Assembly: GCF_030512175.1 (NCBI RefSeq)
Contig: NZ_JAULBL010000002.1
Location: forward strand, 2,168,149-2,232,148
Direction: 5' to 3'
Source of the DNA: Paeniglutamicibacter sulfureus
GTDB taxonomy: Bacteria > Actinomycetota > Actinomycetes > Actinomycetales > Micrococcaceae
Length of the DNA: 64,000 bases
Shown: in pieces, positions 12,387-17,877 of the stretch
Numbering within the stretch: the stretch's first letter is position 1
Layout: every line of letters begins with the position of its first letter
Notes under the pieces: generated by a model
Database searches by the model: none
Told to the model about the DNA's origin: nothing
The model's input: only the letters and a program-made list of their open reading frames with translations
Program-made: the position numbers and the translations under genes

Positions 12387-12812
12387 TTATTCGCCGAGGT
12401 CCGGATCCACGCCCTCGGTCGTGTCGTCGACGTGCAACTTGACGGCTCCCAGATTCCGCTCGTGGGGTCCAGCGGCACGGCGAAGCACGATCACGACGAG
12501 GACCCCGATGACTGCCAGGGTGCCGAGGACGGCCAACACCCGACCACGGCCCTTGTGCTTGCTGCCTGCCTTCCGCTGGGCGTTGCGCAAGGCCAGTTCG
12601 ACAGCTTTCCGGGCACGGCGGGCCGTCTTGCGGTTACCCGTCACGGTGGCCACGACCTCCTCGGATGCCCGGGCCAGCCCGGCCGGGTCCATCCGGTCCA
12701 CGGCGTGGCGCACGGAGGCCTCCAACTGGCTGGGATACTCCTGCTTTGCCTTCTCCGCCCAGTGCTTGAGCTGGGTCTGGATCGTCTTCATCTGTTTTTC
12801 GAGATCATGCAT
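12387..12812 (-). CDS. Hypothetical coiled, single-pass membrane protein
   Basis: 141 residues of unknown function. The first 95 are charged and helical (begins MHDLEKQMKTIQTQLKHWAE), followed by one hydrophobic segment (VLAVLGTLAVIGVLVVIVL) and a short acidic tail. The ATG at 12812 follows AGAGGA. It lies 63 bases downstream of the LapA-domain gene on the same strand, so the two may be cotranscribed. Confidence 0.7.
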   Translation of the reverse strand: MHDLEKQMKTIQTQLKHWAEKAKQEYPSQLEASVRHAVDRMDPAGLARASEEVVATVTGNRKTARRARKAVELALRNAQRKAGSKHKGRGRVLAVLGTLAVIGVLVVIVLRRAAGPHERNLGAVKLHVDDTTEGVDPDLGE

Positions 12813-12875
12813 CGTTGGATCCTCTCTGCTGTTGACATGTGAAACTACGTTCGCCCACAACGGATGCGATTTTGG

Positions 12876-13217
12876 TCAGGATTCCCGGCGCTTGGCCGCC
12901 GTACCTGCGCGGCTTCGCAACTGGATGATGCGTACCGCCGCGACAATGGCCACGACGACTGCCCCGCCCACGGCCGCAAGCAACATGGACACGCCAAGGG
13001 CCATCTGCCCTTGGAATCCGAGGAAGTTGACGGTCGCCTGGGTCTGGTTCTGCATCATGAATATCACCAGGAGGATCAGCACCACGATGGCGACGATGGT
13101 GAATGTCCAAATCACCCCTGCACGTGTCGTCGCCGTGACGTTCTTGGTTGGCCGATTACGGATGGGTTTACCGGACACGGCGTCCGGCTCGGCACGTTTC
13201 CCCGGGTTTTCAACCAT
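12876..13217 (-). CDS. LapA-domain (DUF1049-like) membrane protein
   Basis: 113 residues. A basic N-terminus is followed by two membrane segments (about 37-55, VIWTFTIVAIVVLILLVIF, and about 75-98) separated by the short QNQTQATVNFLGF turn that marks the LapA domain, then a basic C-terminus. Start at the ATG at 13217, which has GGGGAAG in front; an ATG four codons upstream is possible. The role of such proteins in Gram-positives is not established. Confidence 0.75.
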   Translation of the reverse strand: MVENPGKRAEPDAVSGKPIRNRPTKNVTATTRAGVIWTFTIVAIVVLILLVIFMMQNQTQATVNFLGFQGQMALGVSMLLAAVGGAVVVAIVAAVRIIQLRSRAGTAAKRRES

Positions 13218-13349
13218 TTGCTTCCCCATTTCTCGGTGTGGTGCCGAATCGAAGGAACTGCGGGAGGATGCCCTGGAGGCCGGGATCAGGGCCCCTGTGG
13301 CCAACATATGCGCATCGCCACGAAGTGGCAAGGGGATTGCGATGCTCCC

Positions 13350-14111
13350 TCAGGAACCGTGTTCTCCGGCATGCTCCACGTGGCGCTGCGCCAGCTTTCG
13401 AAGATATCCAGCGAAGCCGGACCCCACTCTTCCCTGCATCCGCCCGGAGGTGATCGCGTGGATTTTTCCAGTGGCCGTGACCCTGGCCGCGCTTCTGCGC
13501 AGCTTTTCAACCAACAGGACGTCCTCGCTCACCGGAACCGGATCAAACCCGCCCACCGCGCAATATGCGGAGGCCCGGAAACCCAGGTTTGCCCCGTGGA
13601 TGTGGCCATGGCCTTCCCCGCGGTCATGGTCTCGCCACCACAATGCATAAAATGCCTGGTCCATGTCGGCGCTGTCGGGCTCCACGGTGCCGGCGATGAC
13701 GTCTGACCCGGACTCCGCCAGCTTCACGGCGCGAGTCAACCAGTGCACCGGGACCCGGGTATCGGCATCCGTGCAGGCAATCCAGATGCTTTCCGGCGAA
13801 TGACGCGCCAGGGTATCCGTGGCCAGGGCTTCGAGGGCGAAATCTATTCCCGCTGCCCGGGTGGCCCCTACCACCCCGCATCCCACCGAAAGCACCGACA
13901 GACGCGGGTCGTTGGCAGCAAAGGATGCCGCGAGCGCCGGTGACGAATCCCGGCATTGGTCAAGGACCACGGTGAGCCGAATCTCGAGCTCGGGCCTGGC
14001 ACGGTTCAACCGGTCCATGGCCTTGCCCAGACGCAAGAGGCATGCGCCAAGCAATTCCTCCTCGTTGCGTGCAGGCACCACAATGACGATCGCCGAGAGC
14101 CTGTCATCCAT
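13350..14111 (-). CDS. Family 2 glycosyltransferase
   Basis: 253 residues. GT2 fold: VIVVPARNEEELLGACLLRL at the N-terminus, a nucleotide-sugar/metal motif in ACTDADTRVP (DAD), and SEDVLLVEKL downstream. No membrane segment, so it is cytosolic or peripheral. The ATG at 14111 overlaps the end of the deacetylase/methyltransferase gene by 8 bases, which suggests translational coupling. It is the last gene of the 17380-13350 operon. Donor and acceptor are unknown; its partners suggest a small glycoconjugate. Confidence 0.88.
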   Translation of the reverse strand: MDDRLSAIVIVVPARNEEELLGACLLRLGKAMDRLNRARPELEIRLTVVLDQCRDSSPALAASFAANDPRLSVLSVGCGVVGATRAAGIDFALEALATDTLARHSPESIWIACTDADTRVPVHWLTRAVKLAESGSDVIAGTVEPDSADMDQAFYALWWRDHDRGEGHGHIHGANLGFRASAYCAVGGFDPVPVSEDVLLVEKLRRSAARVTATGKIHAITSGRMQGRVGSGFAGYLRKLAQRHVEHAGEHGS

Positions 14112-15477
14112 CGTTCCCGCCTGCCTTTTCGAGGACTTCCAGCACAAAATCTGATTCCCGGTGCAGCACCTTGGTCGCCAGACCCAGACCTTGCGCGGCG
14201 GCATGCACCTGGGCACCGTCCATCGGCCAGCCACTCACCGGATGCAGCCAGTGGCACAGGAGCAGGTGCCCTCCTGCGGAAAGCGCCTCGAGACAACGCG
14301 CGTACAAGAGGTCAAGTTCGTCGGCGGCCAGGAAATACCCGATTTCCGAGACCACGACCAGGTCCTGGGATCCGGGCATGACATCGGGCCACTCGTGGGG
14401 CAGTACCGCTTGCCTGAGCACCACGTGGTTGAAGCCGGCCAGGCGCGGGGCGGCTGATTCCAGAGCAACCCGGCTCGCATCAACGGCCAGCAGGGTGTCG
14501 GCACGTTGTGCAAGGTCCCGGCTCAACACCCCGATCGAACAACCGAGCTCCATGACGGCGCCGTACCGGGACCGGGGAAGCGACGCGAGCGTGATCGCGC
14601 GCTTGCGACGTTCGTAGGCGCTTCCCAAGTAATCCCATGGATCGGGCCGACGCTCATACAGTCCGTCAAAGGTGGCGGATGCCGTGGCGGAATCCCGATA
14701 TCCCGGGGGAGTGAACCGAAACGTTTCAATGGTGCGTCGGAAGTGTTGAAGGAAGGAGTCCTGAAGCAGCGGCGCGTCCTGCGGTGCATCGGACAGCGGA
14801 GCCACTTGGGAACGGTGGGATTCAGTGGCCCGTGCCTTGGCCCGGGTCGTGTCGGCATCCATGGCCAGCGAACCCCAGTGCTCCCACTCGGTGTCCCGCT
14901 CCGGCGTGGCCCAGTGCCAGTACCAGATGGGGTATTCCAGCAGGCCGTGGCCCAGTTCGTCGGCCAGGCTTGCCGCCAGCGCACCGAGCGCGTCGTGGTC
15001 GGTATGGCCGTCGCGGCGGTACGGGGCCACCAGCGTGGTCCGGCCCTTGGCCGTCGCCTTCCTGATGGCTGACTGGATCTGCTGACTGTGAGACGCCAGC
15101 GAGCCGTCCGGCAGGCCCAAGGTTTCAAAGGTGAGGGTGCCGGCGCCGGGGGAGTCGGGAGTGAGCTCCCCGAGTGCCTGGGCCAGTTCTGCGACCCGAA
15201 TGCCGGCGAGGCGTTCGGGCGAGTGGGTGGGTGAATCCGGGTGGGACGCCTCGCCGGCGGTGGCCACGATCACGTGGACTGCCGTTCCGGCGCGCAGCGC
15301 CTGATGGATCAGGCCCGCCGCGCCGAGGGTTTCGTCGTCCGGATGCGCGGAGAGCACCACCAGTGAGTGTGCCGCCCCGGCAAAGCAGTCCATGGGAAGG
15401 GCGGGCAATTTTGTCACGCCGGCTGCCAGCCAGAGGGTTTCCTCGGTGCCGGGTTCCAGGTGGGTAAAGCTCACCAT
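14104..15477 (-). CDS. Fusion of PIG-L-type deacetylase and SAM-dependent methyltransferase
   Basis: 457 residues. The N-terminal half (about 35-250) is a PIG-L/LmbE zinc deacetylase: VLSAHPDDETLGAAG supplies the AHPDDE metal motif and RRDGHTDHDALG the second metal histidine. The C-terminal half (about 280-450) is a class I methyltransferase of the NodS-like type: VMELGCSIGVLSRDLA is the SAM-binding loop. The likely activity is removal of an N-acetyl group from a sugar followed by methylation of the product, but the substrate is unknown. The start overlaps the upstream acyl-CoA dehydrogenase gene by 7 bases. Confidence 0.88.
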   Translation of the reverse strand: MVSFTHLEPGTEETLWLAAGVTKLPALPMDCFAGAAHSLVVLSAHPDDETLGAAGLIHQALRAGTAVHVIVATAGEASHPDSPTHSPERLAGIRVAELAQALGELTPDSPGAGTLTFETLGLPDGSLASHSQQIQSAIRKATAKGRTTLVAPYRRDGHTDHDALGALAASLADELGHGLLEYPIWYWHWATPERDTEWEHWGSLAMDADTTRAKARATESHRSQVAPLSDAPQDAPLLQDSFLQHFRRTIETFRFTPPGYRDSATASATFDGLYERRPDPWDYLGSAYERRKRAITLASLPRSRYGAVMELGCSIGVLSRDLAQRADTLLAVDASRVALESAAPRLAGFNHVVLRQAVLPHEWPDVMPGSQDLVVVSEIGYFLAADELDLLYARCLEALSAGGHLLLCHWLHPVSGWPMDGAQVHAAAQGLGLATKVLHRESDFVLEVLEKAGGNDG

Positions 15478-16616
15478 GGGCACGAACCTCCTTCCGCCGC
15501 TTTGGGGGCCTTCAACAGCAGCCCGCCCAGTGCTGCGTCGTCGCGGGATGCATGGTGTTGCCGGATGTAGATTCCCAGGTCGACCACCCTTCGGGCGTGT
15601 TGGTGGTCGAAGCCCAGGGGACCGGGTCCCATGGCCTGCCCCGCAATGGCGATGATGCGTTCGCACATCCCCGCCACATGTCCACGCACCCGCTGGGCGG
15701 AAACTTCGTCGAGGCTTCCCTGGTCAGCCGCCTGGGCCGCGCGGTGAAGCATGGCAGCCCCTGAGGCCAGCATTCGGTCGGCTTCGCCCAGCCAAGCCAA
15801 GGCCAACTGGTCGGGTTCGCGAGACTGGGCGGAGCGGAAGAGGTCGCGGAAGATCCCGACTGCGCCGCCGAACCAGCAGGCGGCGACTCCGACGCCCCCG
15901 ACGGCGAATCCGGGCCGGTCCAGGTACCAATCGGTCGGACCAATGGGAAGGGCCGGGGCACGGTTAAATTGCACTGCCTCGCTGTGGATCTTGTTCAGGC
16001 CGTGACTGGCCCAGTGACCATGGTGCGCGATCACGCCAGGTTGCTTCAGGTCCACCATGAAGGCTCGGCGCCCGCCGGGGACATGGGCGGTGACGACGGC
16101 ACGGTCCAGTGTCGCGGCCAGGGAGCACCATGGCTTTTGTCCTTCCAGAACCCAGGGGCCTGACGGTTGTGCCGGGGCGGCGGCAACAAGCTTGGGCCGA
16201 CCCTCGGCGGCAAAGACTCCCCAGGTGCTTCCGGCGGGCCAGGGGAGTCCCGCCTGCGCGAGGATTGCCGCGGCGTCCAGATGCGGCTCAACCGTTCGGG
16301 CGGCCGCGAGGTCGACGCTGGCCAGCGTGGCCAGGAACTCCCACAGGGCGACAGTTCGCCCGTCGCCGGGTGTGGGCGGCGACTCGACGAAGGAGGCCAG
16401 TAGTCCGAGTATCGGCACCGGATCGCCGGCGCACGTATAGGCGGCATCAACCAGAGCAGGTGCCAGATCCCATTCCAGGCGCGAAGTTGTTGCCGGTGAA
16501 GTGAAGGCGACGGTGGCCGGCTCCTTCGGGCCCGTTGCCGACCGGGATCCGCGTGCCGCCATTTCAGTGCCGCCAATGTGGTGTTGCGTCAGTCGTGGCT
16601 CGCTCAACATTGTCAT
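15471..16616 (-). CDS. Acyl-CoA dehydrogenase-like flavoprotein
   Basis: 381 residues with the acyl-CoA dehydrogenase architecture: a helical N-terminal part, a middle beta-domain (GPWVLEGQKPWCSLAATLDRAV, FMVDLKQPGV) and a helical C-terminal part (GEADRMLASGAAMLHRAAQAAD). It is divergent and I could not point to the catalytic glutamate, so the reaction is uncertain. The ATG at 16616 overlaps the stop of the upstream gene (ATGA) and has GGAAGGAGA in front. Its place inside a glycosyltransferase/deacetylase operon suggests a role on a lipid or acyl part of a conjugate rather than beta-oxidation. Confidence 0.8.
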   Translation of the reverse strand: MTMLSEPRLTQHHIGGTEMAARGSRSATGPKEPATVAFTSPATTSRLEWDLAPALVDAAYTCAGDPVPILGLLASFVESPPTPGDGRTVALWEFLATLASVDLAAARTVEPHLDAAAILAQAGLPWPAGSTWGVFAAEGRPKLVAAAPAQPSGPWVLEGQKPWCSLAATLDRAVVTAHVPGGRRAFMVDLKQPGVIAHHGHWASHGLNKIHSEAVQFNRAPALPIGPTDWYLDRPGFAVGGVGVAACWFGGAVGIFRDLFRSAQSREPDQLALAWLGEADRMLASGAAMLHRAAQAADQGSLDEVSAQRVRGHVAGMCERIIAIAGQAMGPGPLGFDHQHARRVVDLGIYIRQHHASRDDAALGGLLLKAPKAAEGGSCPW

Positions 16617-17296
16617 TCTCCTTCCGTGGCGGTTTCGTCATGCGGGGTGCCCACGGGCTTTGACTCGGCCGAGCCGCGCTGGCGCAGGAAGATGGAAAGG
16701 GTGACCATGCTGCCCACGGCCAGGAACTCGGATTGCCAGTTCTGCAGTGTCCGGTCCCAGAAATCGGCGCTGGTCACATAACCGAACCACCCGACCTCCG
16801 GCTGCCCGTGTTCCAGTTGGTCGGCATTGAACACCACGGTCCCGGCCACCGATTGCAACCACCACGAAAGCAGGAAAACGGCTCCCATGACCAAAAGCAA
16901 GGAATTGGAGTACACGAGCCGCCGCCAGCCATCTGCCTTGGCCCATTTGGGGGAATCCGGTTTGGCGAAGCGACCCACCATTTGGTTCTCGTCGCTGTCG
17001 GGCCCCTCGTCGCCTGGCTTCTTGGACTCGGGCGAACCATGCTGGACAAACCATATTGTCGCAAAAATGAAGAGGAAGAACTGCAGGTACTCCGACTGCC
17101 AGTTCTCCGCGACATCGACAACGAAATTGCTCGATGTCACGAATTCCCAGTATCCGAGGCTAGCGGCTCCGTGGGCGATCTGGTCTTCGTTGTAAACCGC
17201 AAGTCCCGCAAATGACTGGCCCACGAGTGCGCCGATGAAAAGAACCGCGAAACAGATGCTGAGCCCTTGGTTTCTGATTGCTTTGGCCACTGACAA
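16613..17296 (-). CDS. DUF6766-like membrane protein
   Basis: 227 residues with two repeated halves. Each half has a hydrophobic segment, then a loop with an aspartate or glutamine before a W-x(3)-F/W-x-VTS-x(2)-F pattern (YWEFVTSSNF and WFGYVTSADF), then ENWQSEYLQFF or QNWQSEFLAVG. I count about four membrane segments. I recall this as DUF6766; function unknown. The start is the TTG at 17296, directly abutting the 27-codon ORF; an internal GTG at 17290 is an alternative. First long gene of the operon. Confidence 0.75.
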   Translation of the reverse strand: MSVAKAIRNQGLSICFAVLFIGALVGQSFAGLAVYNEDQIAHGAASLGYWEFVTSSNFVVDVAENWQSEYLQFFLFIFATIWFVQHGSPESKKPGDEGPDSDENQMVGRFAKPDSPKWAKADGWRRLVYSNSLLLVMGAVFLLSWWLQSVAGTVVFNADQLEHGQPEVGWFGYVTSADFWDRTLQNWQSEFLAVGSMVTLSIFLRQRGSAESKPVGTPHDETATEGE

Positions 17297-17380
17297 TCAC
17301 CGCCCGGAAAAACTGACGATGGCCATGAACGTCAGCCCGCTGAGTATCATTCCAAGCCACAAAGCAAATTGAGTCCTCAT
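17297..17380 (-). CDS. Possible 27-residue membrane peptide heading the operon
   Basis: A short ORF from the ATG at 17380 encodes a basic start (MRTQ), one hydrophobic segment (FALWLGMILSGLTFMAIV) and a basic end (SFSGR). Its TGA abuts the TTG start of the next gene with no gap, which favours a real translated ORF. No clear ribosome binding site is visible, and the frame is open further upstream. Confidence 0.4.
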   Translation of the reverse strand: MRTQFALWLGMILSGLTFMAIVSFSGR

Positions 17381-17616
17381 GACGCGAGCGTATGGCCTAC
17401 GGCTATCCACGTAAAGGGAACTGCGTTTCGGCACTGCGAACAAGGGCACAGATGACGTCACCTGAGGCAACACGCTCACGGGAGCGGGGACAAAGACGCC
17501 CGCTGGCCGATGGAAAATCAACATTGCAACGCCGTTTGTCAACGGTTCCTGCAGTTAAGGAGGAAGATGGGTTGCCCCGGCGTTGGCCGCGGCAACCCAC
17601 CCCCCATGTGCAGCGG

Positions 17617-17877
17617 TCAGGCCTTCTTGCGCGTCAACAGTCCCCAGATAATGAGGACAAGCAACGCTCCGCCGATGGCCAGCAACCATGTTGAGAGCGA
17701 CCAGAACTCGTTGATCCCAACACCGAAGATTGCCGATCCGATCCAGCCGCCGAGAACGGCGCCGACGATTCCGAGCAGAAGGGTGGCGATCCAGCCGCCA
17801 CCTTGGTCACCCGGTTTGATTGCCTTTGCAATGGCTCCGGCAATCAGTCCTAGAACAATCCAACCAATGAAACCCAT
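17617..17877 (-). CDS. GlsB/YeaQ/YmgE family stress membrane protein
   Basis: 86 residues, three membrane segments, rich in glycine. Family hallmarks: MGFIGWIVLGLIAGAIAKAI at the start, then GDQGGGWIATLLLGIVGAVLGGWIGSAIFG. The ATG at 17877 has AAAAGGAGAAAA in front. Such proteins are widespread, induced by general stress, and of unknown biochemical role. It lies upstream of the DUF6766 operon on the same strand, separated by about 235 bases. Confidence 0.92.
   Translation of the reverse strand: MGFIGWIVLGLIAGAIAKAIKPGDQGGGWIATLLLGIVGAVLGGWIGSAIFGVGINEFWSLSTWLLAIGGALLVLIIWGLLTRKKA

What the first reader, a model, noticed from the sequence alone, without database searches (positions are those of the whole stretch)
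13350..17380. Overlapping operon joining a DUF6766 protein, an acyl-CoA dehydrogenase-like protein, a deacetylase-methyltransferase fusion and a GT2
Four genes overlap by 4 to 8 bases at each junction, so the set is translationally coupled. The activities (remove N-acetyl, methylate, transfer sugar, oxidise an acyl group) would fit assembly of a small glycolipid or thio-sugar conjugate, with the membrane protein as anchor. It sits among katE, ligD and GlsB-type stress genes. I know of no defined product for this combination. This is my best candidate for an undescribed system in the window.
Basis: partly seen in the sequence, partly recalled or inferred. Interest (0 to 1): 0.7.

Follow-up and report, generated by a model that had tools for sequence, protein, structure and literature searches.

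The report
Stress-linked amino-sugar methylation operon
Four enzymes encoded in overlapping genes recur together across distantly related bacteria, often near genes for DNA-break repair, catalase or trehalose, and they probably build a small sugar-based molecule whose amino group is first uncovered and then methylated; the molecule itself is unknown.

Summary
In detail: DUF6766, an ACAD-like protein, a deacetylase-methyltransferase fusion and a GT2 overlap by 4, 7 and 8 bases. The conserved unit is four activities: ACAD-fold flavoprotein, PIG-L deacetylase, NodS-like methyltransferase and GT2. It recurs in Actinomycetota, Proteobacteria, Deinococcus and Nostoc. In 246 Actinomycetota genomes, 25 of the 26 with the methyltransferase also have the flavoprotein (found in 30), always adjacent. 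DUF6766 is a local passenger (3 of 132 loci).

In eight Rubrobacter-type loci PIG-L is absent and an unrelated NodB-like (CE4) deacetylase sits in the operon, which points to de-N-acetylation. All 27 methyltransferases scanned match NodS, an amino-sugar N-methyltransferase, though generic models match too. The "acyl-CoA dehydrogenase" lacks the catalytic glutamate in 132 of 132 members, so acyl oxidation is unlikely.

Best reading: a soluble pathway adds an N-acetylamino sugar to an acceptor, removes the acetyl, N-methylates the amine and oxidises the product with flavin; the product is unknown. LigD, Ku, KatE or alpha-glucan/trehalose-type genes lie near 53 of 132 loci. Against: 14 of 80 proteobacterial loci lack PIG-L, and 11 of those genomes have none of this subfamily. 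Ten full-text searches found no paper on the module.

The parts
15471..16616 (-). ACAD-fold flavoprotein (core gene 1), no catalytic glutamate at the canonical site
   Evidence: Acyl-CoA_dh_M E 1.6e-6, below cut-off; AlphaFold2 mean pLDDT 81.3; Glu column 0 of 132; profile matches to flavin monooxygenases, KijD3 and ACADs
14671..15477 (-). PIG-L (CE14-type) deacetylase domain, N-terminal half of the fusion (core activity 2)
   Evidence: PF02585 E 1e-22; HPDDE and DxHxDH motifs present; profile matches to diacetylchitobiose deacetylase, BshB, MshB and teicoplanin deacetylase structures
14104..14670 (-). NodS-like SAM methyltransferase domain, C-terminal half of the fusion (core activity 3); the boundary at 14670/14671 is approximate
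   Evidence: Methyltransf_25 and NodS above cut-off; 4isc E 4.1e-38; profile A3: NodS structure 3ofj E 5.2e-26
13350..14111 (-). GT2 glycosyltransferase, no obvious membrane span (core gene 4)
   Evidence: PF00535 E 2.6e-11; DAD and ED motifs in the alignment; maximum 19-aa hydropathy 1.49
16613..17296 (-). DUF6766 membrane protein; promoter-proximal passenger, not part of the conserved module
   Evidence: PF20554 E 1.3e-95; found in 23 of 120 Micrococcaceae genomes but next to the ACAD only in G000, G022 and G111
17297..17380 (-). 27-aa membrane-type micro-ORF ending at the DUF6766 start codon
   Evidence: read from the sequence; a similar peptide sits upstream of DUF6766 in 13 of 23 loci by eye, own locus included

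Best explanation
A soluble four-step amino-sugar pathway used under stress. Inferred order: the GT2 transfers an N-acetylated amino sugar (donor probably UDP-GlcNAc, unproven) to a small acceptor; the PIG-L domain removes the N-acetyl; the NodS-like methyltransferase N-methylates the freed amine, in Micrococcaceae within the same polypeptide; the ACAD-fold flavoprotein oxidises the product, more likely as a monooxygenase or amine oxidase than as an acyl-CoA dehydrogenase. Shown by computation: the conserved module, gene overlaps, family memberships, the loss of the ACAD glutamate, the CE4 deacetylase in place of PIG-L in Rubrobacter-type loci, and the recurring stress-gene neighbours. Inferred: substrates, order of steps, N- rather than O-methylation, the flavin chemistry and the role in stress survival. 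Acceptor: unknown; trehalose or a maltooligosaccharide is a guess from the gene neighbours.
For: (1) Module conserved: ACAD in 60 of 120 Micrococcaceae and 30 of 246 Actinomycetota; methyltransferase in 26 of the same 246, overlap 25, all 25 on the same contig within about 2 kb (hypergeometric 3e-28, ignoring relatedness). Order ACAD-PIGL-MT-GT2 in 49 of 80 beta/gamma-proteobacterial loci; PIGL-MT fusion in 22 of 22 Micrococcaceae loci examined. (2) Replacement of the deacetylase: 8 of 19 non-Micrococcaceae actinobacterial loci carry a CE4 protein next to the ACAD and no PIG-L within 6 kb (Pfam Polysacc_deac_1 E 3.3e-23 on one; named example Rubrobacter indicoceani); 7 of these 8 genomes have no match to this PIG-L profile anywhere at E<=1e-10, the eighth only weak ones, while three genomes with the PIG-L operon are found as they should be. 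(3) NodS Pfam model matches 27 of 27 module methyltransferases at E<=1e-3; NodS 3ofj is the best named structure after the orphan 4isc. (4) Separate rhizobial and Sulfitobacter proteins fuse GT2, NodS and CE4 in one chain (Pfam on one). (5) Flavoprotein: no Glu in 132 of 132 at the canonical column; A1 profile best hits are 5z8t/5gj7 and KijD3 3m9v/4kcf, ahead of the best ACAD; 7 of 8 CE4-type operons add a pyridine-nucleotide FAD reductase, as an oxygenase would need. (6) A member of the LigD, Ku or KatE clusters in 33 of 132 loci and of amylase/GH77 clusters in 20 others.
Against: 14 of 80 proteobacterial loci have ACAD, MT and GT2 but no PIG-L; of those 14 genomes 2 have a strong copy elsewhere, 1 a weak one, 11 none, so the deacetylation step is not always from this enzyme. 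14 of 80 lack a same-strand GT2 within 6 kb. Generic methyltransferase models also match 27 of 27, and for the window's own domain Methyltransf_25 scores better than NodS; the NodS equivalog cut-off is not met (28.2 of 300 bits). For the flavoprotein: single-sequence search gives only ACADs, weakly; Pfam finds Acyl-CoA_dh_M in 42 of 43 and no PF08028; Foldseek ranks ACADs and monooxygenases alike, an isovaleryl-CoA dehydrogenase first; and the family lacks the H-N/D-P signature of the monooxygenase-like proteins in its own genome. 79 of 132 loci show none of the listed stress neighbours within the stretch fetched. No metabolite, expression or mutant data.
Confidence: 0.55

Rival explanations
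1. The ACAD-fold protein is a true acyl-CoA/ACP dehydrogenase that makes an unsaturated acyl chain, and the pathway makes an N-acylated or N-methyl, N-acylated glycolipid, like a Nod factor.
For: ACAD fold with TM about 0.7 to many ACADs; Pfam Acyl-CoA_dh_M in 42 of 43 members; NodB/NodS-like partners.
Against: No Glu at the catalytic column in 132 of 132; three have Asp there. No acyltransferase was recognised among the recurring neighbour clusters that I annotated (20 of them). The other known Glu position (isovaleryl/long-chain type, recalled) was looked at only by eye.
Confidence: 0.12
2. The product is a modified cell-surface or exopolysaccharide sugar: the enzymes decorate a polymer rather than make a small molecule.
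For: Extra glycosyltransferases and a catalase precede the module in Sphingobium; Deinococcus fuses a roughly 390-aa N-terminal region, unmatched by Pfam at E<=0.001, to the ACAD; trifunctional GT2-NodS-CE4 proteins sit among polysaccharide genes.
Against: GT2 and the other core enzymes of the window show no clear transmembrane stretch; no flippase, polymerase or export cluster was recognised among the annotated recurring neighbours.
Confidence: 0.2
3. The module makes a thiol or a thiol-detoxifying sugar conjugate, like mycothiol or bacillithiol.
For: PIG-L enzymes de-acetylate mycothiol and bacillithiol precursors; weak matches to BshB and MshB models.
Against: BshB1 34.4 of 182.5 bits, MshB 24.8 of 224.35 bits needed; no cysteine ligase recognised among the annotated neighbours.
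Confidence: 0.05
4. A generic linkage of unrelated stress genes: the four genes travel together by shared regulation and do not act in one pathway.
For: LigD, Ku, KatE and alpha-glucan genes are functionally diverse yet adjacent.
Against: Overlaps and order kept across phyla, fusion of two activities, near-perfect joint presence and like-for-like deacetylase replacement.
Confidence: 0.08

Closest known systems
Nod-factor enzymes NodC/NodB/NodS (rhizobia)
   Same: GT2, amino-sugar de-N-acetylase and NodS-type methyltransferase act together; some module operons use a NodB-like CE4 deacetylase.
   Different: PIG-L instead of CE4 in the window; GT2 without obvious membrane spans; NodS equivalog cut-off not met; an ACAD-fold flavoprotein is added; no nodulation setting.
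Mycothiol/bacillithiol de-N-acetylases (MshB, BshB) and diacetylchitobiose deacetylase
   Same: PIG-L fold and zinc motifs.
   Different: Far below equivalog cut-offs; fused to a methyltransferase; different operon partners.
ACAD-fold sugar N-oxygenases KijD3, DnmZ, ORF36
   Same: Fold, and profile matches; partners suggest an amino-sugar substrate.
   Different: Sequence identity below 20% in the structural alignments; activity unknown; not in an antibiotic cluster.
4isc, an unassigned methyltransferase structure (named in the PDB only as Methyltransferase)
   Same: Nearest solved relative of the methyltransferase domain, E 4.1e-38 and 3.1e-62 with the profile.
   Different: No function given in the table seen; that it comes from Pseudomonas syringae is recalled.

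Membership tests
Acyl-CoA dehydrogenase (canonical) | ACAD fold | tested here: met
   AlphaFold2 model, Foldseek matches E about 1e-11
Acyl-CoA dehydrogenase (canonical) | catalytic glutamate of the YEGT(S) site | tested here: not met
   0 of 132 members have Glu; six canonical proteins of the window's genome have it, but they were chosen because they show the EG(T/S) motif (6 of 9 superfamily proteins aligned)
Acyl-CoA dehydrogenase (canonical) | Pfam cut-off | tested here: not met
   Acyl-CoA_dh_M 28.6 of 33.3 bits for the window protein
Group D flavin monooxygenase / nitrososynthase | closest profile relatives | tested here: inconclusive
   best hits with A1 and A6 profiles, but Pfam shows no PF08028 in 43 members and the fold search does not separate
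Group D flavin monooxygenase / nitrososynthase | oxygenase activity with reduced flavin | not testable with these tools
   needs enzyme assay
NodS methyltransferases | NodS Pfam model PF05401 | tested here: met
   29.0 bits for the fusion against cut-off 24; 27 of 27 at E<=1e-3
NodS methyltransferases | NCBIfam NodS equivalog cut-off | tested here: not met
   28.2 of 300 bits
PIG-L (LmbE-like) de-N-acetylases | Pfam PF02585 and zinc motifs | tested here: met
   81.5 bits against 28.2; H(P/A)DD(E/D) in 108 of 108 and DxHxDH in 107 of 108 module PIG-Ls
Mycothiol/bacillithiol deacetylases | equivalog cut-off | tested here: not met
   MshB 24.8 of 224.35, BshB1 34.4 of 182.5, BshB2 32.6 of 195.25 bits
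Nod-factor biosynthesis | membrane chitin synthase NodC | tested here: not met
   GT2 of 253 aa with maximum 19-aa hydropathy 1.49; NodC not among its family matches

The most novel reading that the evidence does not exclude
The module makes an N-methyl-N-hydroxy (hydroxylamine) or nitrone amino-sugar conjugate: deacetylation frees the amine, the NodS-like enzyme methylates it and the ACAD-fold flavoprotein oxygenates the nitrogen, giving a sugar-based radical scavenger or protectant made with catalase, end-joining repair and trehalose under drying or oxidative stress. It would be a Nod-factor-like chemistry used for survival, spread across several bacterial phyla.
Probability: 0.12. Interest if true: 0.88.

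Novelty: new variant of a known kind. Interest (0 to 1): 0.62.

Why it matters
A pathway kept in distant phyla, with conserved gene overlaps and a deacetylase replaced like for like, must make something worth keeping, yet I found no paper that describes it (searches; open-licence full texts only). Relatives sit in Deinococcus, Rubrobacter and Nostoc and on Acinetobacter and rhizobial plasmids, and in 20 Pseudomonas loci directly behind alpha-glucan genes, so the product may be an overlooked protectant of stressed bacteria. It also shows that many genes named acyl-CoA dehydrogenase here probably are not, and gives the unassigned structure 4isc a likely role.

Tried and rejected
DUF6766 as part of the system: rejected. 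Fold search to decide between dehydrogenase and monooxygenase: does not separate them; the second aligner was not available. Alignment A7 of the fusion with separate PIG-L and methyltransferase proteins was misaligned (13-20% identity in the PIG-L rows), so the second structure prediction was not run. Literature: ten searches; 'DUF6766' gave no paper. Papers seen as search listings unless said otherwise; passages only of PMC8982409 (the P. syringae treY/Z deletion covers PSPTO3125-3130; no acyl-CoA, deacetylase or methyltransferase in the text), PMC8084333, PMC12029717, PMC3591346 (no hit), PMC6599016 (EcfG regulon of Sphingomonas includes Ku, GlgX, catalase and glycosyltransferases; the module was not identified there) and PMC8092242. 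Supplements were not available. Promoter and terminator scan of 12800-17700 was no better than shuffles.
Full report
What is there. The window carries, on the minus strand, DUF6766 (17296..16613), an ACAD-like gene (16616..15471), a fused deacetylase-methyltransferase (15477..14104) and a GT2 (14111..13350), with overlaps of 4, 7 and 8 bases. A 27-aa membrane-type micro-ORF (17380..17297) ends at the DUF6766 start. The window lies in a 4.55-Mb genome whose family I take to be Micrococcaceae from gene content; the name comes from no call.

The true unit. ACAD profile A1 finds a match at E<=1e-20 in 60 of 120 genomes of the same family and in 30 of 246 genomes of the phylum. The methyltransferase profile A3 (E<=1e-30) finds 26 of the same 246; 25 are shared, one (G324) has only the methyltransferase, and five have only the ACAD (G009, G214, G246, G279, G300; the last three near the threshold). 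In all 25 the two genes are neighbours on one contig by their coordinates. The hypergeometric figure is 3e-28; it ignores relatedness. Order within 6 kb of the ACAD: ACAD-PIGL-MT-GT2 in 49 of 80 proteobacterial loci, ACAD-PIGL-MT in 13, GT2-ACAD-PIGL-MT in 3, ACAD-MT-GT2 in 14, ACAD alone in 1 (L117, where a long ORF lies between ACAD and the rest). PIG-L and methyltransferase are fused in 22 of 22 family loci. The 11 plasmid loci (Kitasatospora, Pandoraea, Acinetobacter, Deinococcus, Sulfitobacter, Bradyrhizobium, Sphingobium, Komagataeibacter, Nostoc) all have ACAD, PIG-L and MT near each other; GT2 was found in 9. DUF6766 is present in 3 of 132 loci. In the family it occurs in 23 of 120 genomes, but next to the ACAD only in the window's genus (G000, G022, G111).

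Deacetylation is the conserved step. In eight actinobacterial loci (L186, L188-L194) no PIG-L lies near the ACAD; instead a CE4 polysaccharide deacetylase directly precedes it. Pfam was run on one of them: Polysacc_deac_1, E 3.3e-23. The named case is a Rubrobacter indicoceani plasmid: deacetylase, ACAD, methyltransferase, FAD oxidoreductase, glycosyltransferase. Seven of these eight genomes have no match to the PIG-L profile at E<=1e-10 and the eighth has only weak ones, while three genomes with the PIG-L operon give strong matches. PIG-L and CE4 are unrelated folds with the same chemistry (established knowledge), so the replacement argues for de-N-acetylation of an amino sugar. Against this, 14 of 80 proteobacterial loci have no PIG-L; of their genomes 2 have a strong copy elsewhere, 1 a weak one and 11 none (positive controls L097 and L107 found). 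There the step is missing or done by something else.

Methylation. PF05401 (NodS) matches 27 of 27 module methyltransferases at E<=1e-3, as do three generic methyltransferase models. With profile A3 the NodS structure 3ofj (5.2e-26) comes after the unassigned 4isc (3.1e-62) and well before the next, phosphoethanolamine N-methyltransferases. Proteins annotated as trifunctional glycosyltransferase/methyltransferase/polysaccharide deacetylase carry GT2, NodS and CE4 domains in one chain (Pfam on one). NodS N-methylates a de-acetylated glucosamine (established knowledge), so N-methylation of the freed amine is the natural inference. It is not proven.

The flavoprotein. The canonical ACAD glutamate column has no Glu in 132 of 132 members: Ser 83, His 32, Pro 6, Asp 3, and single or double counts of Ala, Thr, Gly, Tyr, Phe, Gln. 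The comparison set was six ACADs of the same genome, chosen because they show the EG(T/S) motif; three other superfamily proteins aligned from that genome also lack it, and not all 13 PF00441 matches entered the alignment. With profile A1 the best PDB matches are 5z8t/5gj7 (8e-18, 1e-17; one titled flavin-containing monooxygenase), then KijD3 3m9v/4kcf (1e-16), the ACAD 2dvl (1e-14) and DszC; with A6, the monooxygenases TdsC and DszC lead. The single window sequence finds only ACADs, weakly, Pfam favours ACAD domains, and Foldseek mixes both, an isovaleryl-CoA dehydrogenase first. Seven of the eight CE4-type operons include an FAD/NAD(P) reductase (Pfam on one), which suits an oxygenase. I conclude that it is not a canonical acyl-CoA dehydrogenase and is more probably an oxidase or oxygenase of the amino-sugar product.

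Setting. Clustering of neighbour genes (one representative per cluster tested with Pfam) shows a member of the LigD, Ku or KatE clusters in 33 of 132 loci and of amylase/GH77 clusters in 20 others, 53 in all (the LigD cluster holds a few shorter ligases and the KatE cluster two fragments). The 20 are all Pseudomonas by title, with an isoamylase-type gene directly upstream of the ACAD. That these are treY/treZ/malQ/glgX-like is inferred from the order reported for P. syringae (PMC8982409, passages). 79 of 132 loci show none of these.

Mechanism and novelty. Most likely: glycosyl transfer, de-N-acetylation, N-methylation and flavin oxidation to a small soluble conjugate used under stress. It works like the NodC/NodB/NodS logic but is not a member of that system: the window has PIG-L, a GT2 without clear membrane spans, and misses the NodS equivalog cut-off. 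The ten full-text searches found nothing on the module. I rate it a new variant of a known kind of amino-sugar pathway, with an unknown product.

Noticed in passing
window 17297-17380 (-): A 27-aa hydrophobic micro-ORF ends at the DUF6766 start codon; a similar peptide precedes DUF6766 in 13 of 23 loci by eye, own locus included, suggesting a small membrane partner of DUF6766.
   Followed up: partly
L009:5698-7947, L069:1190-3529, L006:4104-6476: In Deinococcus the ACAD of the module carries an extra N-terminal region of several hundred residues (about 390 in L009) that looks like a glycoside-hydrolase barrel by eye; Pfam gave no match for it in L009 at E<=0.001.
   Followed up: partly
L070:5396-8476, L071:5405-8407: Proteins that fuse GT2, NodS-like methyltransferase and CE4 deacetylase, among polysaccharide genes in Sulfitobacter and Rhizobium plasmids.
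   Followed up: partly
L117:11047-14856: A 1270-aa ORF lies between the ACAD and the rest of the module (PIG-L at 16445) in Pseudomonas anatoliensis; nature not determined.
   Followed up: no
L006:6484-7836, L069:4246-6858: In two Deinococcus plasmids unrelated genes (TnpB-type endonuclease; helicase) interrupt the module.
   Followed up: no
window 12876-13331 (-): Small membrane protein gene just downstream of the GT2, possibly LapA-like by eye; not tested.
   Followed up: no
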